From contig CAJQUW010012957.1 in NCBI GenBank assembly GCA_907163375.1, positions 196,501 to 260,500 of the forward strand: 64,000 nt of DNA, given 5' to 3'. The stretch comes from Prostheceraeus crozeri (taxonomy: Eukaryota > Platyhelminthes > Polycladida > Euryleptidae). The notes under the pieces are model-generated. The model searched no databases, had not been told where the DNA came from, and saw only the letters and a list, made by a program, of their open reading frames with translations. A program made the position numbers and the translations under genes. Positions 23,098 to 63,727 of this stretch are shown here, piece by piece (positions within the stretch are counted from its first letter, which is position 1; each line of letters opens with the position of its first letter).

Positions 23098-23126
23098 TAT
23101 CCATTACTTATTTCCTGCATGATGTA

Positions 23127-37436: not shown

Positions 37437-37497
37437 GCGTAACAGTCGATTCTACGACTGAAGACAAAGTTTCATCAGCAGGTGAAAAACGACGAAA

Positions 37498-37716
37498 ATG
37501 GGCAACAAGGCCAGCAAACGAGGAGCAGCGTCCCAGGCGAGCAGGACTTTGCCAAGTAAAAAGGAGAGGGGCCAAAGCATGCCTCGACCAGAAGAAGAGA
37601 AGGATTTTCAGAACCAATGGACTGAATTCATTGAATCCATGGACATTGGACCTGATCGTGTGAGAGGAATGGATTCTTGGGATGATGACAAGAAATGGGA
37701 AATGATGTGCGATTGG
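37498..37716 (+). CDS. FMNL: FMNL/Frl-type formin, coding exon 1 (N-terminus)
   Basis: First coding exon of a diaphanous-related formin, a family that nucleates and elongates actin filaments under Rho-family GTPase control. The ATG at 37498 has A at -3 and G at +4. The protein starts MGNKAS, with Gly2 and Ser6 as in N-myristoylation signals, and vertebrate FMNL proteins also start MGN and can be myristoylated. A basic, low-complexity stretch follows (about residues 3-30). Near residues 60-73 comes DDDKKWEMMCDW, the counterpart of the family KKWELICDQ-type motif that opens the GTPase-binding domain. Translation stays open past 37716, but GTAAGT at 37717 is a strong donor exactly where family similarity stops, so the exon ends in phase 0 after Trp73. 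A possible 5'UTR acceptor lies near 37437 (pyrimidine-rich, then TTTTAG). Assignment rests on the three exons together. Confidence 0.85.
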
Positions 37717-38922
37717 GTAAGTAGACAGTACAATGATATCCAGTTTCTCTTCCTTCGTAGTCTGAAAGATAGTAGTGAAGGAACATCAAATCAATGCCAT
37801 GAAGGGAATGCCCAAATTTCCGAGGGGTTTTTGTGTTATTTAGCAGTAAAGATTTTACAAATTGTGTGGGAGTTATGTCTCCTGAGTTAAGTGCCGGAAG
37901 GAAAAATCCACCCACGGGATCAGAGAGCTAACTTTTCCAAAGCAATTTCCTATAAAGGAGAAATCATAAAAGTCTATAAACAAAATGTGATTAGTCAGAG
38001 ACTGCCAAGATATCCATATAGTCCCTTAATTTTCACATTCATAGATTTCGCGATGCAACCATCAATTTCAGAATTAACAATAGACATCTGTAAATCATCA
38101 AATGAAAAGCTACATTGTTCACACTATCTATGGTACTATTTGCTAATAAGCGGTCAACAATGATGAAAAAAGCGGTCATGAAATGGCTAAGGTAATTATA
38201 ATAACAATAATGATAAGGCTACAGTAATCATGTTTGCACAAAGCAATGTTAAATGTTACACCAACAAGATTTCAGGTTTCTACTTTATTTACATTTATAA
38301 TAGTATTGTTAAAAACACCGGAGAAATGCACTGATATATGGGACGATTCTCTTAATAATAAAGTAGTGTTCACTTCAAGGCGATCTTTACGAAGTTCCTG
38401 CACTCTTATTTTTCCACTCCCAACAGGTATCACTTTTTGAGAGACCATGCTTCGTATTCATGAACATCGAACTCAGGCGTCATTTCATCATTCAGATTTT
38501 TGTCGAATTCAGGTGACATTTCATGAATGTATCGAATGCCAGACTCTAATGTAATCCAATCCAGCATTTCTGAATTCACGCCCGATAATTCACCTCCTGG
38601 TACATTTTGCAAATTCAATGACTTCCTCACTTATTCCATCCATGCTTCGTTCAGCGATGATTTGAAATGCCGTTAAGAACTGTTTGATGCTGCTACCCAT
38701 AGAAATTAACAATGCCATAGAAAGTCTACTATTATCTACTTATTATACAATCGTAGCTACATGTCTTAAACTGGCCCGTAAATTTTGAAGCATGACAAAA
38801 GATCCCAACATCTACTGTTGATTTTTGCTTTCCGTTGTTGAATTGGGTAGATCTACTATTGACTTGAGATCACCGCTATTGAATTGCGTGTTTCTACTAA
38901 TGACTTGGAAAAGGTGTATAAT

Positions 38923-38950
38923 ATAGAAATCTGCAGCTTCAGATTTCTAT
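38923..38950. repeat. perfect 11-bp hairpin
   Basis: ATAGAAATCTG and CAGATTTCTAT arms around a 6-nt CAGCTT loop. The same AAATCT...CAGCTTCAGATTT theme forms the apex of the hairpin at 39165. Confidence 0.9.
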
Positions 38951-39164
38951 TTTTGCATGATATACTCGTTAAATGTTTAAATAGAATGACAAATATCACA
39001 AACTCAATCAAGTGCTTCATTTTAGAATTCAGTGCAGTGTTACAACATAATCAAATCATTGATGAGCAATGCATGGAAAGCACTTGCAGGATGCTAGTTA
39101 AAGATGTCTATGAACAATGTCACTTTGATCTCTTTTTCAGAGAGATCTAACTTGATTACATAAT

Positions 39165-39267
39165 GAATGAAGTTTTCTATGTCAGTCAATAAAACCTTAT
39201 AAATCTTCAGCTGCTTCGCAGCTTCAGATTTGTAACGTTTTATTGACTTCCATAGACAACTTCATTC
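39165..39267. repeat. 103-bp fold-back repeat
   Basis: Arms start GAATGAAGTTTTCTATG and end CATAGACAACTTCATTC, continue through CAGTCAATAAAAC and GTTTTATTGACT, and close on CAGCTGCTTCGCAGCT. Small bulges only. Within formin intron 1. Confidence 0.88.
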
Positions 39268-40688
39268 TTATTTTAAAACAAATCATATCAATGAATCAAG
39301 ACATAGCTTTACAGAGATATTTAGCCAAGATTTCCATGAAATGAATGTTTTTGGCATAGAAGTATTTGCTCATTGGCGATATTTAGTTGAAGGTGATGTT
39401 AAATATCTAATGTTAAACGATTTAAATTCATTTTTTATCAATACCAAAATGTTTTTATTTGGGCGAGCGCTTTCGAGTATTTCCACTCATTTACAGGCAT
39501 CATTCTAATAACAGAAATAACAGAAGCCCTTTTCATCAAACAATACATCACACAGAATAAAAGCCTACTGAACAACCACAGCACATCAGAAGAATTGTTC
39601 TGTTTTAATTGGATTGATTTGATTTTAACTCGCGCCACCTGAAATTTGTATTTATGCTTGCTTTTACCGTTGAATGATGCCTGTAGATGAGTGGAAATAC
39701 TCAAAAGCGCTCGCCAATAAAGTGCAAAATGTTTTTATTTACAGAGATAGCATGATGTACATATACACTATAAAAGTGTATAAAAAAGTTATAAAAAACA
39801 AGAAACTAAACGCCTCCGTGCAGTGTGTGAGGAGAGCTCGAGCATTGGCATTGGCTAATTAAATTCATTCAATCTAAAATCTATGTCAACAAATAAAACA
39901 TAGAAAAGTGTAAATTTTAAATTACATTGACTAGATACAGAAATATTCAACAATAGAATTCTATAAATCCAAATGAAAAGCTACATTCTCTCTCAAGAAA
40001 ATAGCTATTCTTTGATAATTATATTCATTCCGATGCAGCTATGTGTTAGAATTCCGGGTTGACTTCATGCTTTTTGGCTATCATGTTCTTGCTGTCTTCC
40101 AATTTCTTATTTTTTTATAAAAGAATACAGTAGTGATGTGCTATGTCAGATTCTCTTGTGCAAACAGATAGAAATAGGTTTTGATAGTACGTTTCAGACT
40201 TCATAACAGCATTTGAATGGAATAAACACACTAAAAGATAAATAATTGCTCAATTGAGTCTGGCTATTCATCAGACCACCATCTGAAGTTTCGCTACATG
40301 CTTATGCATCGTCCGAGCAATCATTCTCTATTTTGCTCCATCGTTTCGGCTATTATGAAGTCACATGCACATGATAATATCAAGCTGATGAGTATCAGAC
40401 TGTTTGTCAATAAACTCTGTGCGGTAAATAACCCACAGTATATTATCATGCTCTGATGTTTACCGATGATGGTAGGTTGTGCAACTGCAATGCGTCGATG
40501 AAATTCATCACAAATTCATATTCACTCAGTATGTAAAAAACTGATTTATGTCATTTGACAGATATATGGATATTCATACCAGTCGATCCTAGCAATTTCA
40601 ACGCATGAATTAAGTAGACTGTATTTTCACGATTTATTGTCATACCGTTTCAAAGACCGCGGTATACATCCATATACTATGTCAGGAG

Positions 40689-41847
40689 CAGAGATGTAAC
40701 CGGTCCGGAATATTCCAGACCGGACCAGACGGACCGGCACCGTATACCGGCGTCCGGCTGTGGACCGACGACCGGCATTGGACCGGCGACCGGATCTTTC
40801 GATGAATATATAGAGTTGAACATTGTTGCCTATAACTTGATGCCGCTAAGATTACAAGCGAATAGGCCTATCGTGAGGTCAGTTATGGAGGCTGTAGGCC
40901 GAAACCTGATGTGCGAGCCTACTAGGCTATCGGCTCATTAGAGTAGACTAAGCATAAGATTGATGTGTAGCTGTAGGTAGGCATTAATATAATGTACAGG
41001 CCTACGATGCACTATATTTAGGCCTTTATATATAGGCCCATCTTGTACCAGATAGGTCCTTTATAGTAGGCTAGACTGCCTGTTATATGCTTAACAGGCA
41101 CTAGCTACATGTTAGAATGTTTACAATTCCTAGCCTAGGCTAGGAACACTTAATTTGATTTTGTCTAGAGCTAGGTTTATGCAGCATCATCTATTGAACG
41201 TACCTTTGTAACCTTTTACGACAACAAGCAAGAGAATTAGAAGGACACGACGGTGGCGGTACTCTGCATGATTTTGCTTTACATAGACGTATGGCAAAAT
41301 GTAGTCTAAGCTTAGTTATCAGATTAAAATCCTTCAGTTCCCCATACGCTACACCTAATGGAAAGAGACATAGGTGATTACACTTTTATATGTTAATTTT
41401 TCACAACAATTTAAAGTTCTAGAATTTCATTGGCGGTGCAATGGGAAAAAAATAAGCTGGAAGGGCCTAACAAAGTCAAAAGATGCCTAGCACCGAGAAA
41501 CAGCCACTGTCACCTGAGAAGATCGCGCGCCTTGCTGGTGAAAGCACGTGATCAAGTCATCAAGCATCGAACGGGAAAGTGCGTACCGGATAGGTATCAG
41601 AATTGCCTGCACAGAAGTCTTCACGCCTAGAGGAGAGCGCATACCGTATGTAAATGTGCCTCGAAAACGGCTGCTAAAATTAACAATTTACTGATTGACA
41701 TGATGCATTCAACATGAAGGACACTTCCTGACATCATACCGGATGAAATTATGCCGATGTGACCGTCTCTGCCGGTATTGGCCGGTCTGATTTTTCAGAC
41801 CGGATCGGCGACCTGCGCCGGTCTACCGGCGACCGGTTACATCTCTG
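40689..41847. mobile_element. hAT-type non-autonomous element (CAGAGATGTAACCGGTC)
   Basis: 1,159 bp with ends CAGAGATGTAACCGGTC and, inverted, GACCGGTTACATCTCTG, flanked by a perfect 8-bp duplication GTCAGGAG (40681-40688 and 41848-41855). CAGAG ends with A2 and G5 are classic hAT. Subterminal CCGGTC/GACCGG repeats form palindromes such as GGTCTGATTTTTCAGACC. No transposase frame was found. Inserted in formin intron 1. Confidence 0.9.
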
Positions 41848-41855
41848 GTCAGGAG

Positions 41856-43859
41856 TGTTCATTATACTCCTGTCCGTTTCTTGCTTATAGATATTGACGA
41901 TGGATTCCACTGCATATGAAGCCGGTCGGCAATAAATCGTGTAAAGTTGCGTGGTCTAGAGCTGTTGACATTGTATTTAACCATAAAGATTGGTTTTGTT
42001 TGCAATTTAATAGCGTGTTTTCATTTATGAATTCCCTGTTACAGTCTCACCATTCCATTTCTGCCGCTCATCAGCACATGTTTTGATAAAAAGATTGTAA
42101 TTGGAAATATTCACAGAATTCATACCGCAGCTCACTGAGCGTCAGATCGCATTTTTCAGGTTGTCACTAAATGTCAAAGTTGTTGACCGTCAATTTCGTG
42201 ATCTTTGATAGTGAAAACTAATTGAATGACTAATTGCAGAAATATCACGTCCAACTCACTATTCAAGAAGAAGATTCACAATGCTTGAATGAAACTAAGC
42301 GTTCTATTTAGACGCTTCCAGCAAACCATGCTTCGATTCCGAGGCATCATTATGAAAGGCGCAGAAAATGGTTGCGTATATCATCATTGCAACTTCAAGA
42401 ATGCATCAATATTGTTAATGATTAAGCTTTCACATTCCGGGTGTTCCAAAAGTGCAAAACTTTAAAGAATTCTCATTTGCTTCAATTTATTCATATATAC
42501 ATGCGGTCTCTTAAAGTGCACCTCAGATCGGGGAATTTAAGACACCACCGTCTGATATCTTCATTGCACCTCGTTTTGTCTCCATTTGCGTAGTAATTTT
42601 CTGAATCTTCACTAGGCAAGTCATTTTCAGCAGCACTGCGCACCTGCAAGATATCTCATGGTTGTCATAGGGACCCTTTCAGCGTTCCCCAACTCACGAT
42701 TGATTCAGCGGTTCAGCGGTTATGACAGACTGCAACATTAGTAGTTGCTCCGCGATCGGATATAAGGCCTAGTTTAGAAGATGAAAAGGAAGATCCTAAC
42801 GGTCGGTCCAAAAAATCAGAAATTTGTGCTCCTATCACGTAGTTTTACTAAGATTCAAATCAATATATTAATTTTTATAACTTGGTTTGTATTAATATGC
42901 AGCATTAATAGAAGACCCAAGTTTTGTATCACTTACCCAAGGTCGACCCAAAACCCAAGGTCCAACCTTGCTTGGAGCTCATTCCACTAATTTCTGTACA
43001 AAATATGATACCATAGCATTACTGGTACATAACGTAAAGACAATAATAATAGCCTTAGATTATGAATTGACAGGTTAATTAGGTAACATAGCATATTATT
43101 GCTCAGTCATCAGGGATCCAGTTTTTAAATAGCCGGAGAGCCAAGAAAGAGCTCACAGAAGTTTTGGTGGACAGCATATTTTCCTCGAAATATGAAAGTC
43201 ACAAATGACGGGTTTTTGGCGTGCAACCACAATAAATGACAAGCAGCGGAGATAGTGCGCCTAATTATTTTCTGTCGACGTAAACTGTTGCATTTGCAGT
43301 CGCATTGCATGAAAGTGCATTTGCCAGAATCTTTGAAAGGATTAGGCATTTCTATCTTTCACTGGGCTGCTTGTAAACCAGTAATCTCACCCAATTGTGT
43401 GTACGGCGAGTTGACTAAAAACAATTTGTCCTAGCATTAATACAGTTGATATACATACCACTATTTCATTAATAATCAACACTTATGCTATCATGACTGG
43501 CAATTGCTTGCCACCTAACTTTATAGAATCATGATAACTTTTGACAGATGAATTATCATATTCTGACCTTTTACGGTACGTTTGAAGAGTTTGTCATTCT
43601 ACTGACATTTCATGACCAATCTGTTTACCAAAAGCAAGGATGAATGAATGAATGATGAAAGCAGTTAAGCAAAAGAAAAAGCAGTCTCTCCCTTCAATTA
43701 CGACTTTTTATTGTAAAGTTAAAACTGAAATGCGAAAATCAAAATCACCCGACGCGTGTCGTCCGAAGACTGTTTCAAGGGGGGGGGGAGAGGGTCCATC
43801 AAATAGATCAGCGGAATAGTATTGGCAACTCATCAAATCTGTTTATGACGTCGATTAAG
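41856..43859. other. formin intron 1, unannotated part
   Basis: No exon or repeat recognised. A short poly-G run lies near 43783. Confidence 0.4.
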
Positions 43860-44560
43860 TTTTCATCGCTATGAAGCGGGCTTGAACCATTCTGGTAGTA
43901 ATCGCATTGAATTGTTGAATAAGAGTCTCACAGCTAAAACCACTCATTTCCATCTCTCTATTGGCATGAAATTTTAGATGATGTTCACTCAAAGCACTCT
44001 TGGAATCTCTGATACGATTACTACGTTCATGTGCTTGATATCGAAGTTTAAAGGTCGACAGCTTTGTCCCATATAAAGGTCATGACACAATAAACACTTG
44101 AAACAATGCACTAAATGTTTGATTTTACAGTTGCATTTAGGGTTGATAGCGTTGCACACATTGCAATTATATTTTTCATTGTTTTTACTTTTATTAATCG
44201 AAATTACTTTTCTTGCTGGTTTACTAGAAAAAGTCACTGGAATGTTGCATTTATTTTTCAACTTATTTAATTTTCTTAAATGGCCATCACTGATAAAATC
44301 GAGTGATGCGTGTATGTTTTGGCATACGGTTTTTTATTATGTCTATCTTTATTAAAATCAGCATTCTTAGGATTAAACTTAAATACCTTTTTATTAATAT
44401 ATATTTTACTATTTTTCAGAAAATTATTCTTTATTGTGTTCGGAATTGCTTTCAGATGAACCTGCTGTATCGATAAAAAACGAACGCACTGAATGAGTAG
44501 TAACTTTATTTTCATAACCATCACGTCAATTGCCATTTTTGCGCCATTAACGGTAAACAA
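43860..44560 (-). pseudogene. Penelope-like element, C-terminal part, 5' truncated
   Basis: On the - strand, a basic linker (about 44290-44420) is followed by a Cys-rich stretch CNVCNAINPKCNCKIKHLVH, then CFKCLLCHDLYMGQS, which fits the Cys-rich linker plus YIG motif (here YMG) of Penelope endonucleases. Downstream in another frame, DSKSALSEHHLKFHAN continues the family. Frameshifts and the YMG change suggest it is dead. It lies antisense to the formin in intron 1. Confidence 0.7.
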
Positions 44561-45292
44561 CTTGATTTTTCGTTGAGCAAGATGTTTTGTAATGCTATTG
44601 TCCCCGTAATTCAGTGCCGCATTCTATCTTTTGTAAGCCCATTTGCGTCACTTTTTTATGTGATTTATGATGGGAGCTTCATAAGAGATGCGCTTATTAG
44701 AGATTATTCTCTGCTGTTGTTTAGCATTGTGGTGTTGAATGTGGATCACAGTGGCTATAATTAGAGAGTGGGTGGATATTAGAGAGGACCCGCCCTCTTT
44801 CTAATAAACACCCCTCCCTAAGTCCTGTGAGCCCCATTAAAGCATCACGATGGTAAAAGCGGCGGAGAAGCCCGATCTCTAATAAAGGCATCTCCTATAG
44901 GATGCAGACCTACAAGCAAAACTGCCCTGAAAACCATTTGTAACTAAGAGAAAACTCTAATTTTTGAAATAGTTGTATAAATTTCTATTTCCAATTTAAA
45001 TTGAAAAAGAAATATTTCAAAATTGATTTTAAACTTCTAATCATGGGTTTGTAAGTATCGCATTATAAAATTATCTGTAAACCGATGATTGGTAAGTATT
45101 TAGATACAAAATTGAGTGTCACATTTTGCCATTTCATCAAGGTGACAAGCCAGTCATGTCAAACAGCGTCCGTAAAATATCATAGTAGCACAGCTGTTGA
45201 TGATAATTCAAAACGCTTAAACAAGCATCGACCTGCGGGAATCATTGTCTCCGCGTGTGCCATAAAAATTGCTTGCATTCATTTCAGAGACC
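44561..45292. other. formin intron 1, unannotated part
   Basis: Contains a small imperfect inverted repeat near 44765-44810 (GGGTGGATATTAGAGAGG and CCTCTTTCTAATAAACACCC). Nothing else recognised. Confidence 0.4.
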
Positions 45293-45300
45293 TGTATACC

Positions 45301-45832
45301 CAAAGAATTAGATAGGTCATCTCTTCTTCCGTTTGACTAGAAGGGAAACATTGGAACATGTAACGTTAATAAAATGGCACAATCTGCTGACTAAATACCA
45401 TAGAAATCGAACAATGAGCAGCCAGTTCAACATTAAACACGCCAAATTGTGCAAAGTTTCAGTGACTGTTATCAACCGGATCACACAGCAAAGAGACACA
45501 GACGATGTCAAGTTCTACAGAGAAGTTTGTGAACGTTTTTTCATGCGCCTGCTAACTTTTTTTAAAATGACTGGAGGGCCCAACATTATTGAGAAAACTT
45601 TTGGGCAGTGATCTGAATTCTTCAAATCTGAAGGAATCGTGGCGATCGGAGCATTTTGAAGGAATTCAGAGCAATCCGCAAGCGACGCACGACCATTTTT
45701 CCTATCTCTGTAAGGGATCAAAAATTTCTTTTTGCCCACTTATTAAGTTCCTGCATGTGCCATCTGTTTGAATCAGTTTGCACTTCTAATAAAGTGACAC
45801 GAGTAAACAATCTAATTCTGTGTGTATACCAG
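45301..45832 (-). mobile_element. hAT-like MITE, CACAGAATTAGA family, copy G
   Basis: 532 bp from CAAAGAATTAGA to TCTAATTCTGTG with a perfect 8-bp duplication TGTATACC (45293-45300 and 45833-45840). The 74-codon frame is intact on the - strand (45515-45739), and a 93-codon frame is open on the opposite strand, so open frames here reflect youth rather than selection. Confidence 0.88.
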
Positions 45833-46336
45833 TCTTCATCCAGCAAGAAGACGCACTTTCTGCCGATACCAAATGTCTGACTGTATCACAACAGTGATTG
45901 TTGCACATGCTTAAAACACTACGGTGATTGTTGTACACGCTTGTATAATAGCGATCAGCAGCGATTGCCGATAATATCGAATGTCACCGGATAAATGTCA
46001 TTCACATGACTATCTACGAAATCTTCACAAAATTCTGCATGTTGTACGAGACAATGACACGCACCATCGTCAATTTGAAACGTATGAGTGGTCATGGAAT
46101 AATGACATTTATAACGCAGCTAATTCATCTCTTTGAAACATTTACTTTTGAATTGAGAATTCCTGTTATCGATTAAATCATGTCTCATTGTAGAAAATAA
46201 TGTCCAGAAATTGTACTCCTCTATAAATAGAATGTTAATAAAATGTTATCAGCATGCACAGTAGCTTGGCTAATGAACTTAGTGCTGCAACTGACTTAAA
46301 AGCTGTATTTTCTTTCTCACAATTCTCTGCCACGAG

Positions 46337-48598
46337 CAGAGCTGGAACCAAGCCATTTATTCGGGACGGATTGTTCTCAGTCTGGGCCCGGGTCCAAAAT
46401 ATTAGGCCCGGCCCGGATGAATTTAGTATTTGGAACCGGGTTAATTTTCATCGTTTTGCGCACTGTGAATGAGTAAATTCAATCAAAGGCCTGCATTATG
46501 CTACTTGTCGTTGCTGCTTGCTGTGAAATCGTTATCGTTGAAATGAAAATAAGTTTTTGCATTTCGAAATTCCTGTCGAGAAATTGATTCTCTTACTGCG
46601 TCGACTCCAAAGTCAAGTTAGAGTTGGAGACGCCTCGGTAATTCGCAATGTCCACATCAATAAAGAACACTAAGAAATGAACGTTTTTAAGATTGTACAG
46701 CATTATGTAGGCCTAAACATTCTCTTGTCCCGGGTAGTCATTGGTTTCTGCCACTAAGAGACCGATGAGACCATCAGCATGCGTATCGAGCAGAAATCAA
46801 ATACGTTACTTAGTTGAGTGTAATCGCCTTAAGAATCACTCTAAAAATCTAATTGTTGATAACATGATCGCATGCTGTAGAGCCTACAATGCACCATTTG
46901 CAAGTAAACTGACAACTGTTGAACGGAAAGGTCAATTTTTAGACATTTAATGTACATTAAATTTTCATTTGTTTTAAATGCTGTACATGTATACCGCGCT
47001 TGTCTGTCACAAATAAATTGGATGTGCAGATAGCTGCCATTGTTGCAAAGCTTCACTCGAAATCTTCTGAAACAACTCGAGAAGTTTGAGACCTCGAAGA
47101 ACTCGGTCATACTTGAGATCCTTGAGTATAACAATCCACTTTATAGGAATTTAAAGTCTAATGCGGAAACACCAGAACGCATCAGGAGTAGACATAGAGT
47201 AGAGATTGGTAGAGTGTCGACTCAAAAAGTATCTGTATATAGCGAAAATTTTTATATCAAACGATTCAGATTTTTGCGGTGGTCTAAAAAATTATTTGAG
47301 CAGTTTTAAAAAAGTCAAAATTTTGCTAATACTACCGAGATGACTCTCCCATGTAAGTAGTATGAAACAACTTGGATATCAAAAGTAATGACTATTTGCT
47401 AATAAGCATCCTAACAAAATCGGAAATCAAGCTAATTATCAAGGGAATTTCATGAATTGTATTATAATGAAAGTCTTCATGAAAAAGCAGCGATATTATT
47501 CTGCTTTCCTAGCTGAAATTTCAAGTTTTTAATTCAATTTTCACCGGCATGATTTTATGATTCACTAAATTCATGTTTCATTTCTAGAATCTGAATAGTG
47601 ATGTTGACCCATTTACATCTTTCAAAGTTAATTGAAGTCATTGTCTTTGATTATTTGATTTTACTTTGCCAGTGGTAGGTTGCCTGTGAAATGATCACGC
47701 TTAAGAAGATTCTCTTGAGGTTGAGCATGAAAGTAATAGGAACCCATCGAATTGATAATTCAACAAACATTAAACCTCCAAGGCTGTCATGAGAATCTGT
47801 AGAATACTATAATTCCTTCTGCATTGCAATCATGATCACTCAATTCCGTCGTAATTTCTTCAAAACTTCAAAAATTTGCATATCTCACATTTCGTAACAA
47901 TTACCACCTGTGTCCCCCTCGAGTTCACTTAAGAAAATCGAAAGTGTATACACATTGAGGATTTAATAAATGCGGAGTTACCACCCTACCTAATATATTT
48001 ACTCTATGGGAACAGATGTCATCCTATTATCTGCTCTTACGAATTCTCGTGCAATATTTTGCCCGCACTTAGTCCTCATTCGTCGCTAATCATCTACTAC
48101 ATCATCTCATGACGCCATTTTGCCATCAATGAAACGAGTTTCGTTGCCCATTAGTAATACTCGCCGCCGGAAGAAGACATTGATTCTCACAACCGCAAAG
48201 ATATTCAATCAACTTTTTGACTTTGACTTTTTTTCTTCTCAAATACATGTAAACCTGACATCGTATCTGCGCCGAACTGCACGATCATCATTTCTTTGAA
48301 TAAACAATTATTATTATAATTGTAAGTTGTATTTAGGTTTATAAAAACAGGGAAAACGAAAGCACCGAAGACATGCAGTCTACTTGAAAAAGTGAAGTCA
48401 TTCTGCCGGTAAATATTTCATTATATTGCTCAAGAACCATGTTGATAGGCCATTATATGAAACTGATTCAGGGAATTTCAATGATCAAATGAGGAAGATG
48501 TTTCTGATTTACAATAAACATTGGTCCGGGTACTAGATATTTCAGGCACGGCTGGTTAAAGATGTTTTATGGCCCGAGCCGGCCCTCTTCCAGCTTTA
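46337..48598. mobile_element. hAT-like element with nested MITE
   Basis: The left end CAGAGCTGGAAC and, from the other strand, the right end TAAAGCTGGAAGAGG share AAATAT and GGCCC-type subterminal blocks. Flanks GCCACGAG (46329-46336) and GCCACAAG (48599-48606) form an 8-bp duplication with one change. Terminal A2 and G5 fit hAT. No transposase was recognised in the 1.4 kb outside the nested CATAGAGTA MITE (47193-48008). Within formin intron 1. Confidence 0.7.
47193..48008. mobile_element. CATAGAGTA-family MITE, copy 2
   Basis: 816 bp from CATAGAGTAG to TACTCTATG. Flanks GGAGTAGA and GGAACAGA agree at 6 of 8 bases. It is longer than copy 1 and similar to copy 3, with TTTTACCGGCATGATTTTATG-like sequence in the middle. 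It is nested inside the hAT-like element at 46337-48598, so it inserted later. Confidence 0.8.
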
Positions 48599-49129
48599 GC
48601 CACAAGTAGTGGATGTACACTTTAATATCAAACCATCATGGATGGAATTATTTTGTCTGTTTGAAGTCAGTTTCCAAAATCGAAGACTATGTGGTCATAA
48701 TTATCGATAGCTACAATAGCAATGCTGCAAAAATGACGTGCTCCATCAGGGCTTATCAAAAATTAATTGCAGTCAATTCGTCGAAATTAATTAATTGCTG
48801 CAATCAAAAAGTTGCAATTGCTGGCAATGCCTACACCATTCACAATAGAAGGAAAATCCCAACTTCAGTGACTTTATCAGATTCTTAGCTTGCCAAACAT
48901 ATATTACACACAACTGACCGCTTTCAGTTGGGAACTGCATGTATTTGCATACTGCATTCTACATGTCGATATTAAAGTACTTTTATGATAACTTCTAAAA
49001 CACTAGTCTGTATTCTGCTACAGGCACGTATGATGATTATCGCTGTAGTATTGATTGTCATTATGGTGCATGAGCTTAGATCTGCTGTAAAATGCATCAA
49101 TATTCTCGTCCAATTATGCAGTTAGGGGT

Positions 49130-49445
49130 CGCCAATAACCGCGTTTTTCTAATGCAGGCTGTTTCAAGGAGTAAACATAATAACTATCACTGCTCGGCAC
49201 GATGTCTGCGAAAGTTTTGAAATTCCTTTCCCATCATCACGTAAGAACTTTGTAGAAATGATGAGATAAGATCTACAGCGCCATCACTATCCTAGAAGTT
49301 TCAAAATTACGGAATATAATAGATTCATAAGATTAAAATCAGGTGAATAAGGTGGCTGCTTTACCTAAGCTTTTCCTTTATCACTCATTCATTTGCTGAC
49401 AATTTGCGCCGCATGTGGCCTGGTATTGTCGTGTAAAGCATGTAG
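49130..49445 (-). pseudogene. mariner transposase remnant
   Basis: The - strand (about 49440 to 49320) reads LHDNTRPHAAQIVSK, then after stops VKQPPYSPDFNLMN. These correspond to the mariner second-Asp motif (LHDNARPHxA) and third-Asp motif (HPPYSPDLxxxD), where the final Asp is Asn here. Downstream sequence is degenerate. Two stops lie between the motifs. A very old copy in formin intron 1. Confidence 0.75.
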
Positions 49446-49923
49446 GTCCGGTGAGGACAAATTATTGCAATTAACTCATTGTTCCCATCAAATAAATGCA
49501 ATTAATTTTTGATTAACCCTGTGTTTTATTGTTTACTGCATATGTCCCTATAACAGACGGGCAGTCGTTCAGATGTAGAAAGATTGAAAGCTATCACCCG
49601 GAAATTGTTAAAATCGGATGATCACAATTACGTAACTGGAGCAAATTTCTCGAAAAGATTGCTTTTTCTTGCAGTTTTCTACAAGCGCTACGGCAATCAT
49701 CTTTTAATCTGCATAGATCATATACTGCGTCACAAAAAATTCTTAACACTTGGAATTACAGGAACCATTATTTTCATTAATACAGTAGCATCAAAATTGC
49801 AACTTTAAATGAAGAAAATTTATTTCACTCATAAGTAGCAACCTGCATGATCGCCCTTGGCATAGAAATTGGTTTGAGAGTAAGATGGACTTAGAAATTT
49901 TACAACTGCCATTGTGGTAATTC

Positions 49924-50045
49924 AGCTATGGTGCAATATGGAAAAAGAAAGGCAACAATGTATCCCGTAATGATGATTTCTCTATGTATACATGTGAAAA
50001 ACATTTTTGAAATCTCAATCAGCGTATATCTACATGTGTATTCAT
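49924..50045 (+). repeat. dispersed repeat R4, copy 2
   Basis: About 120 bp similar to 30921-31041, same orientation. No function recognised. Confidence 0.8.
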
Positions 50046-50821: not shown

Positions 50822-51761
50822 AAAAATAGCCAAGACAATATATGAAAAACTGTACCAGTCATTGACAACTATTTTCCAATTTTTCAACACTGGAATACGA
50901 ATTGAAATTTGGTTCACAGGGTCATAATCGAAAGTGGTCGGTGTACTGGTTGTAAGAACATTTCAAGAATTCAAAGATAAAAATTCCAAGTATTGGACAA
51001 TTTCTCCTTCTAAAGATCAAGAAACCTAACGCTCTTCCGGAAGAAACACATCGAAAACTTCTTTAACAACAGTCATTTATCAGATAAAGGAAATATCGTT
51101 GGAACTTTTCAATTAATCACTAAATGATTTATATGACATAGTGTGATGATATTTTGGAGGCTCATATTCGAAAGCACGCAAAAGTTTTGAAAATTGTTCA
51201 AATATAATGAACAGGGGAATGCTTCAAAGCAAAATGAATACTCTAAGATTTCTTGGCCTCTGATTTCAAGCTGGAGTAATGCAGGTTCTGAAAATCGACA
51301 TTACAAATTGCACAGGTGTCTGATTATACTCTTGATTGATTATAAGAGCGATATTTCAAAATGATGACCATACAGAACGCTTTAAAGGATTTCCTTCTTT
51401 GTCTTCCTGTCGCTTCAATATTTTGTAAATTCACTATTGCTTTTGTGTACAATATCTTTGGACCAGGGACAACAATCCAGAATACACATTGACTTGATAA
51501 TTAAAAAACCCAACCAGAAAACAAGAAAGGCAGTCCGTAAAATTTGCTTTTTGCCCCAACTAAGTTCCCTCGGAGTGTGCCATAATTTTCCTGCAATTTC
51601 CATTCTAGGACTTTCTATGGCATTGTTAATTTCTATGCTTACAGCTTACTCATTGATGCTTTCAAAATCTAGAAATCTGATATATTTATTAGTAATGATA
51701 AGTGTTAACTTTTTTCTATCACACAGTATAGGTAAAGGTTATATCAACAAGGTCTCAACAA

Positions 51762-51824
51762 GGGCAATTGCATGTAAACATCCCGAGGGCGAAGCCCGAG
51801 GCATGTTTACATCAACAATTGCCC
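51762..51824. repeat. fold-back repeat with CCCGAGGGC apex
   Basis: Arms GGGCAATTG and CAATTGCCC, inner CATGTAAACAT and ATGTTTACAT, apex CCCGAGGGCGAAGCCCGAGG. It shares its apex theme with the fold-back at 22972-23097. Confidence 0.85.
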
Positions 51825-51904
51825 GATAGTTGGGACTGCTATGAACTAGATTAACCGTTTTAAACCATGTCTGTTTGACATTGATTAACCAAGATATTCT
51901 TGAT

Positions 51905-52066
51905 TTATAGAAATCTGAGTAAACAGATCTCGGGAATGATAGAAATCTGAGAAAACAGATCTCGGGGAATGATAGAAATCTGAGTAAACAGATTCCGGGG
52001 AATGATAGAAATCTGAGTAAACAGATCGCGGGTAATGATAGAAATCTGAGTAAACAGATCCTCTCA
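51905..52066. repeat. 33-bp minisatellite of hairpin-forming units
   Basis: Five units of 32-33 bp, each containing GAAATCTGAGTAAACAGATC. ATCTG and CAGAT within each unit are self-complementary around AGTAAA. The units vary mainly in the CTCGGGGAATGAT linker. Confidence 0.93.
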
Positions 52067-52907
52067 GGCGTTTACGTTCCATATCGCTATGACATAGATA
52101 GGAAAATCATCAGTAGCAAACATAATTTCTGGATATTTGTAGCAATAGCGAAGGTACCTGCAAATATTTCCGATATTTACAAAATGTATCAAGATTATGG
52201 TAAATAATTTCCCCTGGCGGATGCATTCATCAAAGATAACTGAAATGTTCAAGAGATAAGTTTGCGATGTGGACAAAGATTATGTGAAGGATGAAAATCG
52301 ACACTTACAAGTCGATGGGAGAGTCAAATACCGACTATACATCTCCTACGGCCAAAGGGAATGACATTGTCACAATCTGATATTGAGTAGCCACAAAAGA
52401 TCCCATGAGCTCTCGATAGATTTGTTTCCAAGGCGTCTTTTACTCAGCCATGAGATTTGCGAAAAAAGGAAGCAAAATGGAATCAAATTTTCAAGAAATC
52501 AAATGGAAGCAACTGCGTCTGTTGAAATGACCGAGAAATTGCAGCAGCACATCAACAAATGCGTCTGATGTGAGGAGTTCCCAGACACAGCGTTTGTGTA
52601 TAAGCAACATTTGAAGTGATCAAACATTGAATCGATATTGCTAGTTGCTTAACGAAAATATGAATAATATGGAGGAAAATATGTTGATGATGTACTCATC
52701 TTGACGCATGCAAAGAAGTGGCAGACAATACATTTTACACATTTCTATACATTTACCAACCCTATGTGAACATCTGTATACATCTTTGTAACTCGCATTC
52801 CCTTTCAATTTTTGTAAGTTGCACATAGAATAATAAATCATGCATTTTGAGTACTAAGACTATACTTCTTGACCGGGTCAGTTGGCGAAATATCGACCAA
52901 TAACTTA
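52067..52907. other. formin intron 1, unannotated part
   Basis: No exon or repeat recognised. Confidence 0.4.
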
Positions 52908-52909
52908 TA

Positions 52910-54251
52910 CTGCCTGACATAAAAAATGCTCCACTCAAATATATGAACTTTATTCCACTCACACTCATGAATTATAAGATAGCATTTTATATAAAACATT
53001 ATATTTGAATAAATGGGAGACTTTAATACCGAGTAGGCCTATGTCCTCCCCGCACTGAAATGCAGCTTTGAAGTCTCATCGGCATCGAGTCGCAAAGATG
53101 ATCAAGCCGTTCCTGATCCAGCAATGACCATTGATCGATGAGTCTCTCTGAAAGAGCTGTCAGTGTTGATGGCGGATGATCACATGCATCTCTCACTTTC
53201 CGACCAAGTTCATCCCAAGCATGTTCGATCGGAGACAGGTCGGGGGAGCGTGAAGGCCAAAGGAGGATGCGAATTCCAGATCTAACTATCGCTGTTGTTA
53301 CACAATGAGCTCTGTGTGGTCGAGCGTTGTCATCCTGGAATATGAGGTTAAGTTCATTTACCGTTGGGATGACGATTGGAGATATGATATTCGATAAGTA
53401 TCGCTCTCCGTTCAAGTTCCCATTCACAATGACTGCGACAGTTCGACCTCCGTACCAGATACCGGCCCAGATCACGCTACCACCACCATAGCGGTCATGC
53501 TCAGATATGCAGCAGGGTGAATACCTCTCTCCAACCATTCGATGCACTCTAATGCGACCATCGTGAAAATCCAAAGTGAAACGGGATTCATCCGTCCACA
53601 TCACTTGACGCCATTCCTCTGTGCTCCACGACAGATGCTGCTCACACCATTCCACACGCTTTCGCTTGTGTTCGAGACCTGCGGAGAAAAAAATAAAAAA
53701 ATTGGCAGTGAAAAAATGTCATTGTGTGAAATTCTCGCATTACTTACTTGGAGGAATTCTTACAGCAGGTTGGTTTGACCTCAGGCCCGCTTCTGCTAGA
53801 CGGCGATATGCTGTTCGTATACTGCATGCAATTCCTGCTGCAGCTTTCCTGCTGATGGCCAGTCGAGGAACACTCTTAAAGCGATTGCGCTTTGCTGAGA
53901 TAACCAACTTCTTATCGGTAGCATTGTTTGTCAATCTCGGTCTCCCTGATCCTTTCCTTCTTTTAACATTTCCATTATTGTTCTATCGACTCCACCACCT
54001 GCTGACAGTGGAGTGTGACACACCCAACTTCCGTCCAACAAACCTACAACTCTTTCCACATCGTAGCATTCCAACAGCCATTCCTTTTACAAACTCGACA
54101 TTTTTGCTTTAAAATTTAGTCAGAAAGAATTGCTTGATAGTGATAAAAGGTCGAATTTGAAATGCATCAAATATGCCAAAGATATCGACAATGGACAGCT
54201 TCTTTATATTAGCATGACAAATTTGATGCATAGACATCCTGGTCAGTGCAG
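52910..54251 (-). mobile_element. Tc1-type transposon
   Basis: About 1.34 kb. Candidate ends are TA-CTGCCTGAC at 52908 and, on the other strand, TA-CTGCACTGACC at 54253. Weaker similarity continues inward (ATGC, CAAAT). TA flanks match Tc1 target use. It contains the transposase described next and lies antisense to the formin in intron 1. The exact boundaries are less certain than the coding content. Confidence 0.6.
53023..54108 (-). pseudogene. Tc1 transposase with 69-nt intron and one stop
   Basis: Cut-and-paste transposase, DD34E type. Exon 1 (about 54108-53748) has a helix-turn-helix region (GRKLGVSHSTVSRWWS, then a GRPR hook). Exon 2 (53678-53023) has the catalytic domain: WTDESRF, QDDNARPH with the second Asp, and SPDLSPIEHAWDE with the Glu 34 residues later, ending ISVRGGHRPTRY. 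Between them 53747-53679 begins GTAAGT and ends in a T-rich tract plus CTCCGCAG, and splicing restores phase. The only defects seen are a TAG after WWSR and no in-frame Met before GMAVGM. This is a recent, probably dead copy. Confidence 0.88.
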
Positions 54252-54253
54252 TA

Positions 54254-55529
54254 TGAAATAAAAGTCGTCCACTTCCATTGAGATTTTCTATATCAAGGGG
54301 ATCGTTTTTGATGTCATAGAGTATATTTTCTCAGCAGCTTCGGCTTATTTTTATTTTCATTTCTTTATATAAAACTGGTTTGTTGATGTTATCTCATGTA
54401 ATCGCTGCATCTTCCTTACAAACGGATGGAGATTCCATTTCAATAGAAGCCTTCAAATATAATACTACTGCAGAAATGTATAAATCCGTTTCAATAACTT
54501 TGTGGAGGAAGAACTCGGTGTAAGCATGGATGGTTCTTATCAGTTTAGCTTCCGTCTTGGCTATTTACGCACGCTGCACAGATAAGATTACACGTGCTTA
54601 TTACCCAGAATCTTGACAGCCGATATGCGTCCGGATTTTCGACATGAAGAATTCGACTTCTCTGATAGCTTTGATAGCTGCGATTAATGACGAAAGTTTC
54701 CTTGTAGCTTCAACCCTCTCCCCACTGAGGGGCGTTTTTCGCACCCCTGACGAATTTTCTGAGTATCTTTTAAACCAAGAAAGCTATGGCCATCAGATTT
54801 CTAGTACTAGCCCGGGAGCTAGCGTGAAGTTGTGCAGGGAACGAGATAGTACATAAAACTTTCACATAAGCATAGTACACCTCTAACCTACTGCAAAACT
54901 TCGCGTCTGCCGGATCAGATCATTTGCTTTTCAGAAATAGAGAGGATAACACAATCCTATGTATTTCCAATGGTAAAATTGTGACATTTAAGGTGTTGAC
55001 TCCATTTTTTCGAATTTTTTCTCATAAAAGTTACACAAATTGGTATTTTGTTGAACTGGTTATTACAGAAATCATCCACAGATCATGATCTTTCAAATGA
55101 GTTATCATTCAGTGACAGAAGATGAAGTAAAGTGTACAAACAGACACTTTTCGTTAAAGTATATCAACAATTTTCCTGAAATTTCTATGTTAAAATTTGC
55201 AGTTACACCAACGAAATATGGAAAAACCTTTTCACATGAAATATTTGCATCTAAGCGTTTTTCAAAAAATGAATTTTGGTGCGATTTGAGTTGGACTAAA
55301 AGTTTGAATTATTTGACCTTTGACCTCATCTAAAACAGTGATATAATTTCATGACTATCAATAATCATTACATTAACCACCTTGACCAAATCTTTTGCTG
55401 TCATTTTCCCTTTCAAATACTGATCTAATGGAATTTTTTTAAAAAATTGGCGTTTTTTCACCTCTGACCGAGGATGATCCTAAAAGTAAAAATAATGCTG
55501 CTTTTTGAATCCTCTTTCATTGCCCTGTA
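54254..55529. other. formin intron 1, unannotated part
   Basis: No exon or repeat recognised. Confidence 0.4.
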
Positions 55530-56330
55530 GATTGATGTGTGGTTTGGCTATAATGGCATAATAGTTTGGGAGATCAGCAGGGGCCGTTCGGAAAAACACC
55601 CCAGTGGTGGGGCGAGGATAAGCCTTGGATTAGCGATTACTTACAAGGGCAATGTCATCATACCGAGATTTCTTGGATACTTCATTAGTTCACTCATCTT
55701 TTTGACCTCCGCAGTGCCTCAAGGTTTGCATTCACGGGAATTCCGCGCGCCTTTTCAATACAAATGCTATGATCTCACTGTTTGCTGACGATGTCGATCT
55801 TGCTGTTCCTTGTGCAGTGTAATTCCTCTCCTTCCAGTCATCTTGATATTCTCTCCAATCATTTTTGTCTGTTTCATGACATTTTCGTCCTTTTCCTTGA
55901 CATTGTCATATTCATGCGACAAATATTGTAAACGCATCAATTTCTCTTTTTGTCAATCATCCCACGTCTCATCATCATGCATAATTGTAGCATAATTTGT
56001 CACTTTTTACGTTCGCGTTCTCGATTTGAGAAATAAGCGTTTTGATATTTTGATATCCTATTCTCGTTGAATTCATCATACTCTCGTTGACACTCGTCGA
56101 TTTTTTACGGCTTCTGTTGAAAAAGATCTTCTATTACATGTGTGTCTGTAATTCATTTCTACTCTAAATGGTGATGAGAAAGAATTTATTCGTTTTTGAT
56201 GCTCTCAGAATGAACGACTGAACCAGGACAAGACACAATCCGTGCTTGCTTCCATGTCTGGGATAACAACCCAAATGCGCATAAAAGATTCCAACATCAA
56301 TCAACAATTCTTAGGGTCGTCTGCAGTTCC
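55530..56330 (+). pseudogene. non-LTR reverse transcriptase remnant
   Basis: SAVPQGLHSREF in one frame resembles the GVPQGSVLSPxLF motif. A shift of frame gives MISLFADDVDLAVP with the catalytic FADD box. Farther on, NERLNQDKTQSVLASMSG resembles the LNxxKT motif that follows the palm in Jockey/RTE-type elements. About 270 bp of unrelated sequence lies between the last two. Too decayed to assign a clade. It ends about 125 bp before formin exon 2. Confidence 0.55.
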
Positions 56331-56454
56331 GCATTTTCTAACTCCTAAATTTGATAAAATTCTACATAGATTGGCTAAGATAAACAAACTTATGTTGTAA
56401 GCAGTTTATTGATAACAAAATTTGATGTAAAATGTTTGATATTTCATATTGCAG

Positions 56455-56556
56455 AGAGAAAAACAAACAAAAAACACTCCTGCGTATTATATCAACTTTT
56501 TGAAATCAAGTAAACAACCTGGAAACCATGTCAAACGGAGCATGTCAGTGAGCAGG
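56455..56556 (+). CDS. FMNL: FMNL/Frl-type formin, coding exon 2
   Basis: A 102-nt exon of 34 codons, too short to stand out by length. It is preceded by a T-rich stretch ending TTTCATATTGCAG and followed by GTAAGT. Both ends are phase 0, which fits exon 1 and exon 3. The peptide begins REKQTKNTPAYYINFLKSS, and the family has ERFQVKNPP followed by a tyrosine-containing segment and QKLKSYLD at this place. The ending (about HVKRSMSVSR) fits the variable basic linker before the next conserved block. Found by searching intron sequence for a donor with an open phase-0 frame. Tandem AGs just after the chosen acceptor (56455-56458) could shift the start slightly, but only the chosen one keeps exon 1 in frame with a family-like sequence. 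Confidence 0.78.
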
Positions 56557-57464: not shown

Positions 57465-57466
57465 TT

Positions 57467-58907: not shown

Positions 58908-58908
58908 G

Positions 58909-59477: not shown

Positions 59478-59479
59478 TA

Positions 59480-60878: not shown

Positions 60879-60880
60879 TA

Positions 60881-62489
60881 CAGGATTCATCTACAAAAAT
60901 TGTAAACATATTTGCACAACATATGCAAGAGGTGAGCGGGACTGGAGCACTGTAGGCATTAAAAACCTCGTTACGTTGAGAGAAGTCTGAAATACATTTC
61001 TGTAATACATTCCATATCAATTGTTTGAATAGACTATATTTACATCGAAGTCGCTTATCACATTTTGTCGCATCAGTTTTAAAGTTGGTTGTGAATCTGA
61101 CTTGAATGTAGACCGACTACAACAACGGACGGATGCATCGCGTTAATAGTGTTCAAAGTCGAGTTTCTCTCTGCAATGTCCCTAAATTCAACACTTTTGC
61201 GCACAGTGGAGAATCATTTTAAGTTCTTGTGAACAAAATAAACAAAGAAATTGGCAAGTGAAAGAATAATTATAAGAAACACAAAGCTGTGATGGAGAAC
61301 TCATGACAATCAGCAGCAAACTGAGAATTAAAGAGCATATAAGAAATCAAATAAACAAATTTTCTTGAAACCGGATGCACATATAGCGTAATCAGGAGAA
61401 CACAGACCTTTAGTAGAAGGCTTCTTCAAAGTAACAGAGAGATTGCCAGAGGAAAACGACACTTTGAATCAGGGATCATCAAAAATTAATTGAATTTCAA
61501 TTCATTGATTTGCTAAGAAATTCCAATTTCAATTAATTAACGGCTCAGTAATAGCAATTTCAATTAAATGATCAAAAGCAGCAATCTAATTGCAATAAAA
61601 TTATTTTGATTAAAAGATTGCTTTGAAGTGATCCTGAAAGCTGATACCATTAAAAAAGGCATTGCATTGTTTTGATACCACATCTCATGAAGGTCAAATG
61701 AACATGTCGTGAACTCCTTCATCTTCAAAATTCAAATTTGAATTCGAAAAACTCAGACTCGATTAGTAGAACACTATTGCACGGGTTGGAGCACTGCACA
61801 AGCTCATTTTCCATGTAGTACCAAGTCCTTTTTTGAAAATTTCATCGTTTTTTCGAGAAAATCGGTTTCTGCTGGCTTTGCTGGTTGTTCGTGTAGGGAA
61901 AATGCTGGAAATTGGTGCACAAACTCAGTTTTTAGTGCTTGTATCTAAATTTTCCATTGGAATACTGTATCACCAATATTTCCACCAATTTTTTGAATTT
62001 AAATTTGAATTTTGAAGCTGAAGGAGTTCAAATTTTGAAACGTTCTTGTCTGTACAAATTCTGCGTCATTAATAGTACGTGTACATGTGGTTTTCGATTC
62101 TGTACAAACTGTTTTCAAAAATTTGGTGTTGAAGTTGGTGCTAGCTAGCTTCAACGACATCAAATTATCAGTGGATCCTTTCTTTGTAGTTTCAATTGAG
62201 CTGTTGTATATTTGAAAAATGTTGGGATACAAACAGTGTTTATTACAAACAATGAAAGTAAAGGGTACCAAATACAAAGAAAAAATGGTTGAAAGAAGCA
62301 TTGAAACTCTTGGCTTGATTGTGATCATTGTCCCACTTGTTGCTCTATTTGTCACACGATGCTGGATAATCTATTATTGACATTACTACGCAGTCGAATG
62401 ACATGCTGATATGCTGTCTCGCTACAACATGAATACTGGTAGGATTCTGCCAATAATAATGGATAATAAGCTGTCGATATCACTTAGAG
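60881..62489. other. formin intron 2, unannotated part
   Basis: AT-rich, with AATTTCAATT-type runs near 61480-61570. No exon or transposon recognised. Confidence 0.4.
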
Positions 62490-63525
62490 ATGACTTCTGC
62501 CTTCACTCGCATTCCTTTTGAATCGTCAGCGTGGCCTAGTGAAGAAGGCACGAGCTCGTCTCCACCGCGGACTTCGGTTCGATTCCTGGGTCAGGCGAGT
62601 GAGGGGGCGGGAAACAAGCATAGAGTAGGGATAGGTAGAGTGTCGACTCAAAAAAGTAACAGTATACAGTGAAAATTTATGTATATGAAGAGATTCAGTT
62701 TTTTTGCATAGATTACGTGGGCCAAAAAAATATTTGATCATTTTTAAAAAAAGTCAAAATTTTGCCAATTTATATACTATCGAGATGAATCTCCTAAATA
62801 TTAAGTAGTATGAACGAAGTTGGATATCAAAGGGAATGAATATTTTCTAATAAGCATCTTAACAAAAGCGGAAATCAAGCTGATTATCAAGGGAATTTCA
62901 TGATCCGTATTATAATGGACGTCTTCATGAAAAAGTCACGATCTTATTCGTGCTATCTTGGCTGAAATTTCAAGTTTTTAATTCAATTTTTACCGGCATG
63001 ATTTTATGATTCACTGAATTCATGTTTCAATATTTCTTGAATCTGAATAGTGATGTGGACCCATTTACATCTTTCAAAGTTAAATGAGGTCATTGTCTTT
63101 GATGATGTGATTTTGCTCTGCCAATGGCAGGTTGCCTGTGATGTGATCGCGCTTAAGAAAATACTCTTGAGGTTGAGCATGGAGGTGATAGCAAACCATC
63201 GAATTGCTAATGTAACAAACATTAAATCTCCAAGGCTGTCATGAGAATCTGTAAAATAATATCATTTCCTTCTGCATTACTATCATGATCACTCAATTCC
63301 GTTGAAATTTCTTCAAAACTGCAGAAATCTGCATATCTCACATTTCGTAGCAATTAGCAATTATATCCCCTTCGAGTTCATTTAATAAAATCGAAAGTGT
63401 ATTCACATTGAGGATTTAATAAATGCGGAGTTACCATTCTACCTAATATACTTACTCTATGGAAAGAAGGGTGTTGGTGTCTTGTATTGACTTAATGGTT
63501 GTCAATCTCTTCAGATATTCAAATC
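62490..63525 (+). repeat. tRNA-derived SINE, copy 3, split by a MITE
   Basis: The head 62490-62618 has the A box TGGCCTAGTGAAG at 62532 and the B box GGTTCGATTCC at 62576-62586. The tail GGGTGTTGG ... TTGACTTAATGG resumes at 63466 and ends near 63525. The MITE at 62619-63461 interrupts it exactly where copies 1 and 2 are continuous. The tail ends about 25 bp before the formin exon 3 acceptor. Confidence 0.88.
62619..63461. mobile_element. CATAGAGTA-family MITE, copy 3
   Basis: 843 bp from CATAGAGTAGGG to TACTCTATG, flanked by GAAACAAG and GAAAGAAG (8-bp duplication, one change). It is inserted in SINE copy 3, so it is younger than that SINE. It shares AGAGTGTCGACTCAAAAA with the other copies. 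Confidence 0.88.
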
Positions 63526-63548
63526 TATTATTGTTTATCAACTTGCAG

Positions 63549-63727
63549 ACCAAGAGAGATGTAGGAGGACGAATTGACGTCGATGGGAAATCATCGACAC
63601 AGATTCTCAGTGACTTAGAAATCTCCTTAAGGACGAATTCAATCGAATGGGTCTACACCTTCCTTGAAAGTGAAGGATTGGATGCTCTAGTGAACTATCT
63701 CTCCATAATGGTCCGCGACCTTGTACG
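63549..63727 (+). CDS. FMNL: FMNL/Frl-type formin, coding exon 3 (GBD/FH3 start)
   Basis: A 179-nt exon. The acceptor is TTTATCAACTTGCAG, ending at 63548, and the donor CG|GTAAGA starts at 63728. It begins in phase 0 and ends after two bases of a codon, so the next exon lies beyond the window. The peptide contains [16 protein letters not shown], then [10 protein letters not shown] and [10 protein letters not shown]. These match the family block [15 protein letters not shown], IGWVxEFLN and GLDxLxxYL, which is the strongest evidence for the formin call. The block belongs to the N-terminal GTPase-binding/armadillo (DID/FH3) regulatory region that mediates autoinhibition. A SINE interrupted by a MITE ends only about 25 bp upstream of the acceptor. 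Alternative: another diaphanous-related formin, but the LEISLRTN block and MGN start favour FMNL/Frl. Confidence 0.9.

What the first reader, a model, noticed from the sequence alone, without database searches (positions are those of the whole stretch)
37498..63727. FMNL/Frl formin gene with the first three coding exons spread over 26 kb
Exon 1 (MGNKAS start, KKWEMMCDW), exon 2 (REKQTKNTPAYYINFLKS) and exon 3 ([17 protein letters not shown]) line up in order with the N-terminus of FMNL/Frl formins. Splice sites are canonical and phases are compatible (0/0, then 2). The middle exon is only 34 codons and would be missed by length-based gene finding. The N-myristoylation signal appears conserved while the linker after exon 2 is diverged.
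Basis: partly seen in the sequence, partly recalled or inferred. Interest (0 to 1): 0.8.

Follow-up and report, generated by a model that had tools for sequence, protein, structure and literature searches.

The report
Start of a flatworm FMNL formin
The three exons are real and encode the front end of an ordinary formin-like (FMNL) actin-assembly protein in what looks like a large flatworm genome; the rest of the gene very probably sits on another contig, and the genome holds a second, similar FMNL gene.

Summary
Exons 37498-37716, 56455-56556 and 63549-63727 (+) have canonical splice sites, introns of 18,738 and 6,992 bases, phases 0, 0 and 2, and an open joined frame. Among PDB sequences the joined peptide matches only FMNL1 (5.8e-21) and FMNL2 (1.1e-18) at E<=1. 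The window's contig ends 6.4 kb after the window. The rest of the gene very probably lies on contig C4867 (minus strand): exon 4 fits exon 3's phase, and the five-exon 411-residue peptide hits FMNL1/FMNL2 at 1.7e-50 against 8e-9 for the next formin. C4867 also carries FH2 exons, best match FMNL3. A second FMNL gene, seen from exon 1 to FH2, lies on C3985 with matching intron positions and phases; the pair shows strong purifying selection. Mitochondrial code and assembly size suggest a flatworm, probably Prostheceraeus crozieri (inference). One survey called FMNL lost from flatworms, but planarian and Macrostomum FMNL names are already in print. An ordinary gene, correctly read. The sister subtype MWHF could not be excluded.

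The parts
37498..37716 (+). FMNL-B coding exon 1: MGNKAS start, first part of the GTPase-binding domain; ends at phase 0
   Evidence: paralogous exon at C3985:136957-137169
37438..37497 (+). probable 5' UTR part of coding exon 1, following an acceptor-like TTTTAG at 37432-37437 (inferred)
   Evidence: a similar TTTCAG lies 41 bases before the ATG of the C3985 paralogue
37717..56454 (+). intron 1, 18,738 bases; holds a repeated DDE_3 (Tc1/mariner-type) element at about 52906-54330
56455..56556 (+). FMNL-B coding exon 2, 34 codons, phase 0/0
   Evidence: splice sites kept in copies on C11388 and C10410
56557..63548 (+). intron 2, 6,992 bases; holds a reverse transcriptase ORF (56760-57494, minus) and a dispersed repeat at about 58588-58907
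63549..63727 (+). FMNL-B coding exon 3 ([17 protein letters not shown]), later part of the GBD region and first armadillo repeat; donor at phase 2
63728..64000 (+). start of intron 3; continues to the contig end 6,388 bases past the window and probably a further 9.2 kb on C4867

Best explanation
The three exons are the 5' coding end of a functional FMNL-type diaphanous-related formin ('FMNL-B'), one of two FMNL genes in this genome. The gene continues on contig C4867 (reverse strand). Shown: splice-compatible exons; GBD, DID/FH3 and FH2 of FMNL type; low nonsynonymous change against the paralogue. Inferred from FMNL biology: the nascent protein loses its Met and is N-myristoylated at Gly2 (MGNKAS, the MGxxxS motif); the membrane-bound, autoinhibited formin is opened by a Rho-family GTPase, most likely Cdc42, binding the GBD-armadillo unit; and the FH1-FH2 part then elongates unbranched actin filaments at the membrane. 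The introns are long at least in part through transposon insertion in a repeat-rich genome.
For: PDB: of 2 hits at E<=1 both are FMNL. With exons 4-5 of C4867 added, FMNL1 and FMNL2 both score 1.7e-50; among the other 14 of 16 hits the best is INF2 at 8e-9. FH2 pieces of C4867: FMNL3 6.6e-43 against DAAM1 3.5e-16. Pfam Drf_GBD 1.5e-23 and Drf_FH3 5.1e-17 on the joined peptide. Exon 3 phase 2 meets the exon 4 phase. In the matches listed, exons 1 and 3 occur on C10751 and C3985 alone, and FMNL-type exons 4-5 on C4867 and C3985 alone, so C10751 pairs with C4867 by elimination. Same intron positions and phases in the C3985 paralogue at four junctions. pN 0.187 against pS 0.914 over 260 codons. 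FH2 lasso F and proline at -4, shared by FMNL and MWHF, seen in C3985 and C4867. The FMNL2 residues E111, D219 and H222 named as Cdc42 contacts align with the same residues here (numbering mapped by me from the motifs).
Against: The C10751-C4867 join is by phase (one in three by chance) and elimination; no convincing overlap was found between the last 6,388 bases of C10751 and the last 2,000 of C4867 (best 25 bases at 84%). R261 of FMNL2, which salt-bridges Cdc42 E95, aligns with Thr here and Ala in the paralogue. No C-terminal DAD/WH2 was established, though that search was weak. The second basic membrane patch is not next to DDIH as it is in FMNL2. No transcript evidence.
Confidence: 0.87

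Rival explanations
1. The gene and its C3985 paralogue belong to the sister subtype MWHF (multiple-wing-hairs-related formins), which shares the Drf layout and the FH2 lasso features with FMNL but lacks a C-terminal DAD/WH2.
For: MWHFs have been mistaken for FMNLs, and they share lasso F and P(-4). No DAD was found by a search with a recalled vertebrate C-terminus.
Against: Strong match to FMNL1/2 across GBD and DID and MGxxxS at the N-terminus of both paralogues. The DAD search had 1 candidate and no positive control, so its silence is weak. No MWHF sequence was available for comparison, so the PDB result cannot separate the two subtypes.
Confidence: 0.1
2. The window holds only a 5' fragment of a duplicated FMNL gene, a relic not joined to any FH2, and C4867 is a separate truncated gene.
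For: The contig ends without exon 4; partial copies of the exon 2 region exist, one of them frameshifted.
Against: Exons 1-3 are intact and conserved against C3985, and the two partial genes complement each other in domain coverage and splice phase.
Confidence: 0.03

Closest known systems
Human FMNL1 and FMNL2 N-terminal GBD-FH3 (PDB 4ydh, 4yc7)
   Same: Order and alignment of GBD and [35 protein letters not shown]111, D219, H222 kept; N-terminal MGxxxS as in FMNL2
   Different: Linker between exon 2 and exon 3 diverged, loop before DDIH different and longer, R261 replaced by Thr, 6-residue insertion in exon 5
FMNL-A on C3985 of the same genome
   Same: Intron positions and phases at the four junctions read; 83% identity in exon 5, 58-66% in exons 1-3
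   Different: Intron lengths (6,698 and 17,998); exon 1 to FH2 on one contig; Ala instead of Thr at the R261 position
MWHF formins
   Same: Drf layout, lasso F and P(-4)
   Different: Could not be compared directly; I had no MWHF sequence
Planarian fmnl3 (PMC4978528) and Macrostomum FMNL1 (PMC5946080)
   Same: Flatworm genes named FMNL in print (passages only)
   Different: Sequences not seen here

Membership tests
FMNL (formin-like, Drf-type) | Drf GTPase-binding domain at the N-terminus | tested here: met
   Pfam Drf_GBD 2.6e-14 on exons 1-3, 1.5e-23 on exons 1-5
FMNL (formin-like, Drf-type) | DID/FH3 domain of FMNL type | tested here: met
   Drf_FH3 5.1e-17; FMNL1/2 1.7e-50 against INF2 8e-9 and mDia1 2.4e-8; depends on the C10751-C4867 join
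FMNL (formin-like, Drf-type) | FH2 domain closest to FMNL, with Phe as second lasso aromatic and Pro at -4 | tested here: met
   FMNL3 6.6e-43; KLPSLNW...GTVF in C4867 and C3985, 2 of the 6 formin contigs whose lasso was read, of 9 contigs with FH2 matches; feature shared with MWHF; depends on the join
FMNL (formin-like, Drf-type) | N-terminal myristoylation motif MGxxxS | tested here: met
   MGNKAS here, MGNRSS in the paralogue; motif as described for FMNL2 in PMC4432619; myristoylation itself not tested
FMNL (formin-like, Drf-type) | C-terminal DAD/WH2 motifs (generally two) | tested here: inconclusive
   No match genome-wide with a recalled 58-residue vertebrate C-terminus; 3 kb beyond the loci of each last FH2 exon read by eye, with one faint candidate (SFDDILSVIS in L056, C3985) and none in L057
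FMNL (formin-like, Drf-type) | Proline-rich FH1 | not tested
   The exons between FH3 and FH2 of C4867 were not read
FMNL (formin-like, Drf-type) | Cdc42-contact residues E111, D219, H222, R261 (not strictly defining) | tested here: inconclusive
   3 of these 4 identical; R261 is Thr (B) or Ala (A); other contacts, such as E360, were not reached
MWHF | DID-DD residues shared with MWH but not with other Drfs | not testable with these tools
   I had no MWHF or MWH sequence; the paper's figure is not held
MWHF | No DAD/WH2 after FH2 | tested here: inconclusive

The most novel reading that the evidence does not exclude
A flatworm lineage kept and duplicated FMNL, and both copies lost the arginine (R261 in human FMNL2) that reads the specificity-giving Glu95 of Cdc42, so that the pair may answer to a different Rho-family GTPase or with changed affinity.
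Probability: 0.15. Interest if true: 0.45.

Novelty: new member of a known kind. Interest (0 to 1): 0.22.

Why it matters
It is a sound 5' gene model that length-based gene finders could miss, and it shows where the rest of the gene probably is. If the genome is a polyclad flatworm, it speaks against the published inference that FMNL was lost from Platyhelminthes as a phylum, which rested on Clonorchis and Echinococcus with a note on Schmidtea; other papers already name FMNL genes in planarian and Macrostomum. The biology expected is ordinary.

Tried and rejected
C12251 as the continuation of the window gene: rejected. Its GBD exon (profile 83-186) overlaps the region of exon 3 (78-133), its lasso has W, and searches with FMNL exons 1-3 and 4-5 list no match on it.

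Overlap of the ends of C10751 and C4867: nothing convincing in the last 6,388 and 2,000 bases.

Exon 2 as part of a high-copy transposon: rejected. The 431 bases around it match at 3 places only. The copies are partial, differently bounded duplications: C11388 is collinear with 48.6-56.7 kb of the window at 93-95% and with 56.7-59.5 kb at 77%; C10410 with 56.2-59.5 kb at 92-93%, less a gap. The C11388 exon is open with one residue changed; the C10410 exon has a 2-base deletion. They look too divergent for ordinary alleles if the genome is P. crozieri, reported heterozygosity 0.81-0.94%, but this was not settled.

C-terminal DAD: not established. Gene context: 104 of the 174 stop-to-stop ORFs of 70 or more residues were scanned against Pfam; 4 families, each in 1 ORF: RVT_1, DDE_3, HTH_Tnp_Tc3_2 and GIY-YIG. 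The ORF around exon 1 was among the 104 and by itself gave no match; that around exon 3 was not among them. ARAGORN and Rfam (gathering) gave nothing. No structure prediction was run, because the spliced protein cannot be read in one frame of the window or a locus.

First flatworm FMNL as a claim: dropped.
Full report
What was checked. The three exons were read directly and joined. Exon 1 37498-37716, exon 2 56455-56556 and exon 3 63549-63727, all on the plus strand, have GT/AG borders and phases 0, 0 and 2, and the joined frame is open over 500 coding bases. The introns are 18,738 and 6,992 bases.

Family. Against all PDB sequences the joined peptide has 2 matches at E<=1, FMNL1 (4ydh, 5.8e-21) and FMNL2 (4yc7, 1.1e-18). 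Pfam gives Drf_GBD at 2.6e-14; exon 1 alone gives 0.17 and exon 2 alone nothing.

The rest of the gene. The window is bases 196501-260500 of contig C10751, which is 266,888 bases long, so only 6,388 bases follow. Among the matches listed genome-wide, FMNL exons 1 and 3 fall at two places each, on C10751 and C3985, and exons 4-5 of FMNL type at two, on C4867 and C3985 (the next match, C382, is at 4.8e-5 and 31% identity). C3985 carries all of them in order, and FH2 exons as well, so C10751 and C4867 are left to form one gene. Exon 3 ends two bases into a codon, and exon 4 on C4867 (159798-159367, minus) begins with the one base needed; its acceptor is a tandem CAGCAG, and either AG keeps the frame. 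Exon 5 is at 158003-157703. The 411-residue joined peptide matches FMNL1 and FMNL2 at 1.7e-50; the other 14 of 16 sequences at E<=1 are INF2 (4, best 8e-9), mDia1 (9, best 2.4e-8) and one unrelated enzyme at 0.034. FH2 pieces of C4867, three of the five listed, match FMNL3 at 6.6e-43 and DAAM1 at 3.5e-16 (9 sequences at E<=0.01). Against the join: no convincing overlap between the contig ends in the stretches held, and a phase match is one in three by chance.

Two FMNL genes. The C3985 gene ('FMNL-A') has exons at 136957-137169, 143868-143960 and 161959-162140, exon 4 at about 187304-187732 and exon 5 within 195969-196277. The intron positions and phases agree with FMNL-B at the four junctions read. 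Amino acid identity A to B is 44 of 71, 18 of 31, 39 of 59 and 82 of 99 aligned residues in exons 1, 2, 3 and 5; over these 260 codons pS is 0.914 (saturated) and pN 0.187 (exon 4 was not in that count). Both copies have been kept under selection as proteins. Whether the duplication is particular to this lineage could not be dated without other flatworm sequences.

FMNL or MWHF. Pruyne 2016 (PMC5047451, passages) describes the sister subtype MWHF, which shares with FMNL a phenylalanine in the FH2 lasso and a proline four residues before the tryptophan, and lacks DAD/WH2 motifs; Pruyne 2017 (PMC5628938, passages) keeps the two as distinct subtypes. Both genes here show the lasso features; of 6 formin contigs whose lasso was read, out of 9 with FH2 matches, only these two do. 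A search for a C-terminal DAD with a recalled human-like peptide found nothing, and 3 kb beyond the locus of each last FH2 exon gave at most one faint candidate. This is inconclusive. I keep FMNL as the better reading for the strength of the FMNL1/2 match and the MGxxxS start of both copies, and give MWHF 0.1; no MWHF sequence was at hand, so this was not a direct test.

How it should work. FMNL2 is myristoylated at its MGxxxS start and binds active Cdc42 through GBD and armadillo repeats; contacts include E111, D219, H222, R261 and E360, and two basic patches help membrane binding (PMC4432619, passages). In FMNL-B the MGNKAS start is there; E111, D219 and H222 are identical in alignment; R261 is Thr (Ala in FMNL-A); E360 lies beyond the exons read. 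Basic stretches occur around the exon 2/3 border (KRSMSVSRTKR) and in exon 4 (RSSKRSSKRHSKEKEK), but the latter is not next to DDIH as its counterpart is in FMNL2. So a membrane-anchored, Rho-GTPase-opened actin elongator is the expected function; all of that mechanism is inferred from the family and none was tested.

Organism. COX1 of the genome (C6227), set against a COX1 from the PDB (5z62_A; mammalian by recall, the listing names no species), reads ATA mostly where Ile, Val or Leu stand (13 I, 8 V, 4 L, 3 M, 2 others of 30), AGA most often at Ser (7 of 15), TGA at Trp (7 of 9), and AAA once at Asn and once at Lys. Identity is highest under table 9, 311 of 490, against 304 and 301 under tables 4 and 5, a small margin. 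Table 9 is the echinoderm and flatworm code (established knowledge). The held assembly has 2,048,925,868 bases in 14,165 contigs; that of the polyclad P. crozieri 2,065,465,794 in 17,074 scaffolds, GC 37.64% (PMC9469890, first of four parts read); the window is 38.5% GC.

What is known. Pruyne 2016 lists FMNL among subtypes lost from Platyhelminthes, from Clonorchis and Echinococcus, with Schmidtea noted for DAAM. However, a planarian splicing study names fmnl3 among planarian-human orthologous groups (PMC4978528, passage), a Macrostomum study lists FMNL1 (PMC5946080, passage), and a later survey reports FMNL missing in five animal species without naming them in the passage read (PMC10598177). 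Searches made: (5,032 papers, 20 listed). So the gene adds to, and does not open, the correction of that inference.

Surroundings. Intron 1 holds a DDE_3 ORF inside an element with 35 other copies of about 1.3-1.4 kb listed at 93-96% identity (40 of 14,389 candidates scored), intron 2 a reverse transcriptase ORF on the minus strand about 200 bases after exon 2 and a dispersed repeat of about 320 bases (40 of 2,280 candidates scored). The DNA around exon 2 is present three times in the genome: the copy on C11388 is open with one residue changed, that on C10410 has a 2-base deletion.

Noticed in passing
window 48622-59483; C11388 (L050, L051) and C10410 (L052, L053): The exon 2 region of the gene has two partial copies elsewhere, mostly at 92-95% identity (77% over 56.7-59.5 kb in C11388); one keeps an open exon 2 with both splice sites, the other has a 2-base deletion. 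C11388 also carries a 2.1 kb insert at window position 56679 related to window 23125-25283.
   Followed up: partly
window 8831-10921: A 2.1 kb G/A-rich polypurine tract without a clear regular unit, giving long open frames on the minus strand without Pfam match for the longest.
   Followed up: no
window 52906-54330: Tc1/mariner-type (DDE_3) element in intron 1, with 35 other near-full-length copies listed at 93-96% identity; it is 95.6% identical in the C11388 copy while the neighbouring stretches are 91-94%.
   Followed up: partly
window 28891-29197: Tandem array of a 26-base unit, 11.7 copies, 94% matches.
   Followed up: no
window 51907-52060: Tandem array of a 33-base unit, 4.7 copies, in intron 1.
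   Followed up: no
C4867:159796-159801 (L012): Exon 4 has a tandem CAGCAG (NAGNAG) acceptor; both choices keep the frame and differ by one serine.
   Followed up: no
C7453:992186-994540 (L006, L004, L015): A formin whose FH3 and nearly whole FH2 lie in long open stretches close together, unlike the scattered exons of the other formins of this genome; possibly a retrocopy or an intron-poor gene.
   Followed up: no
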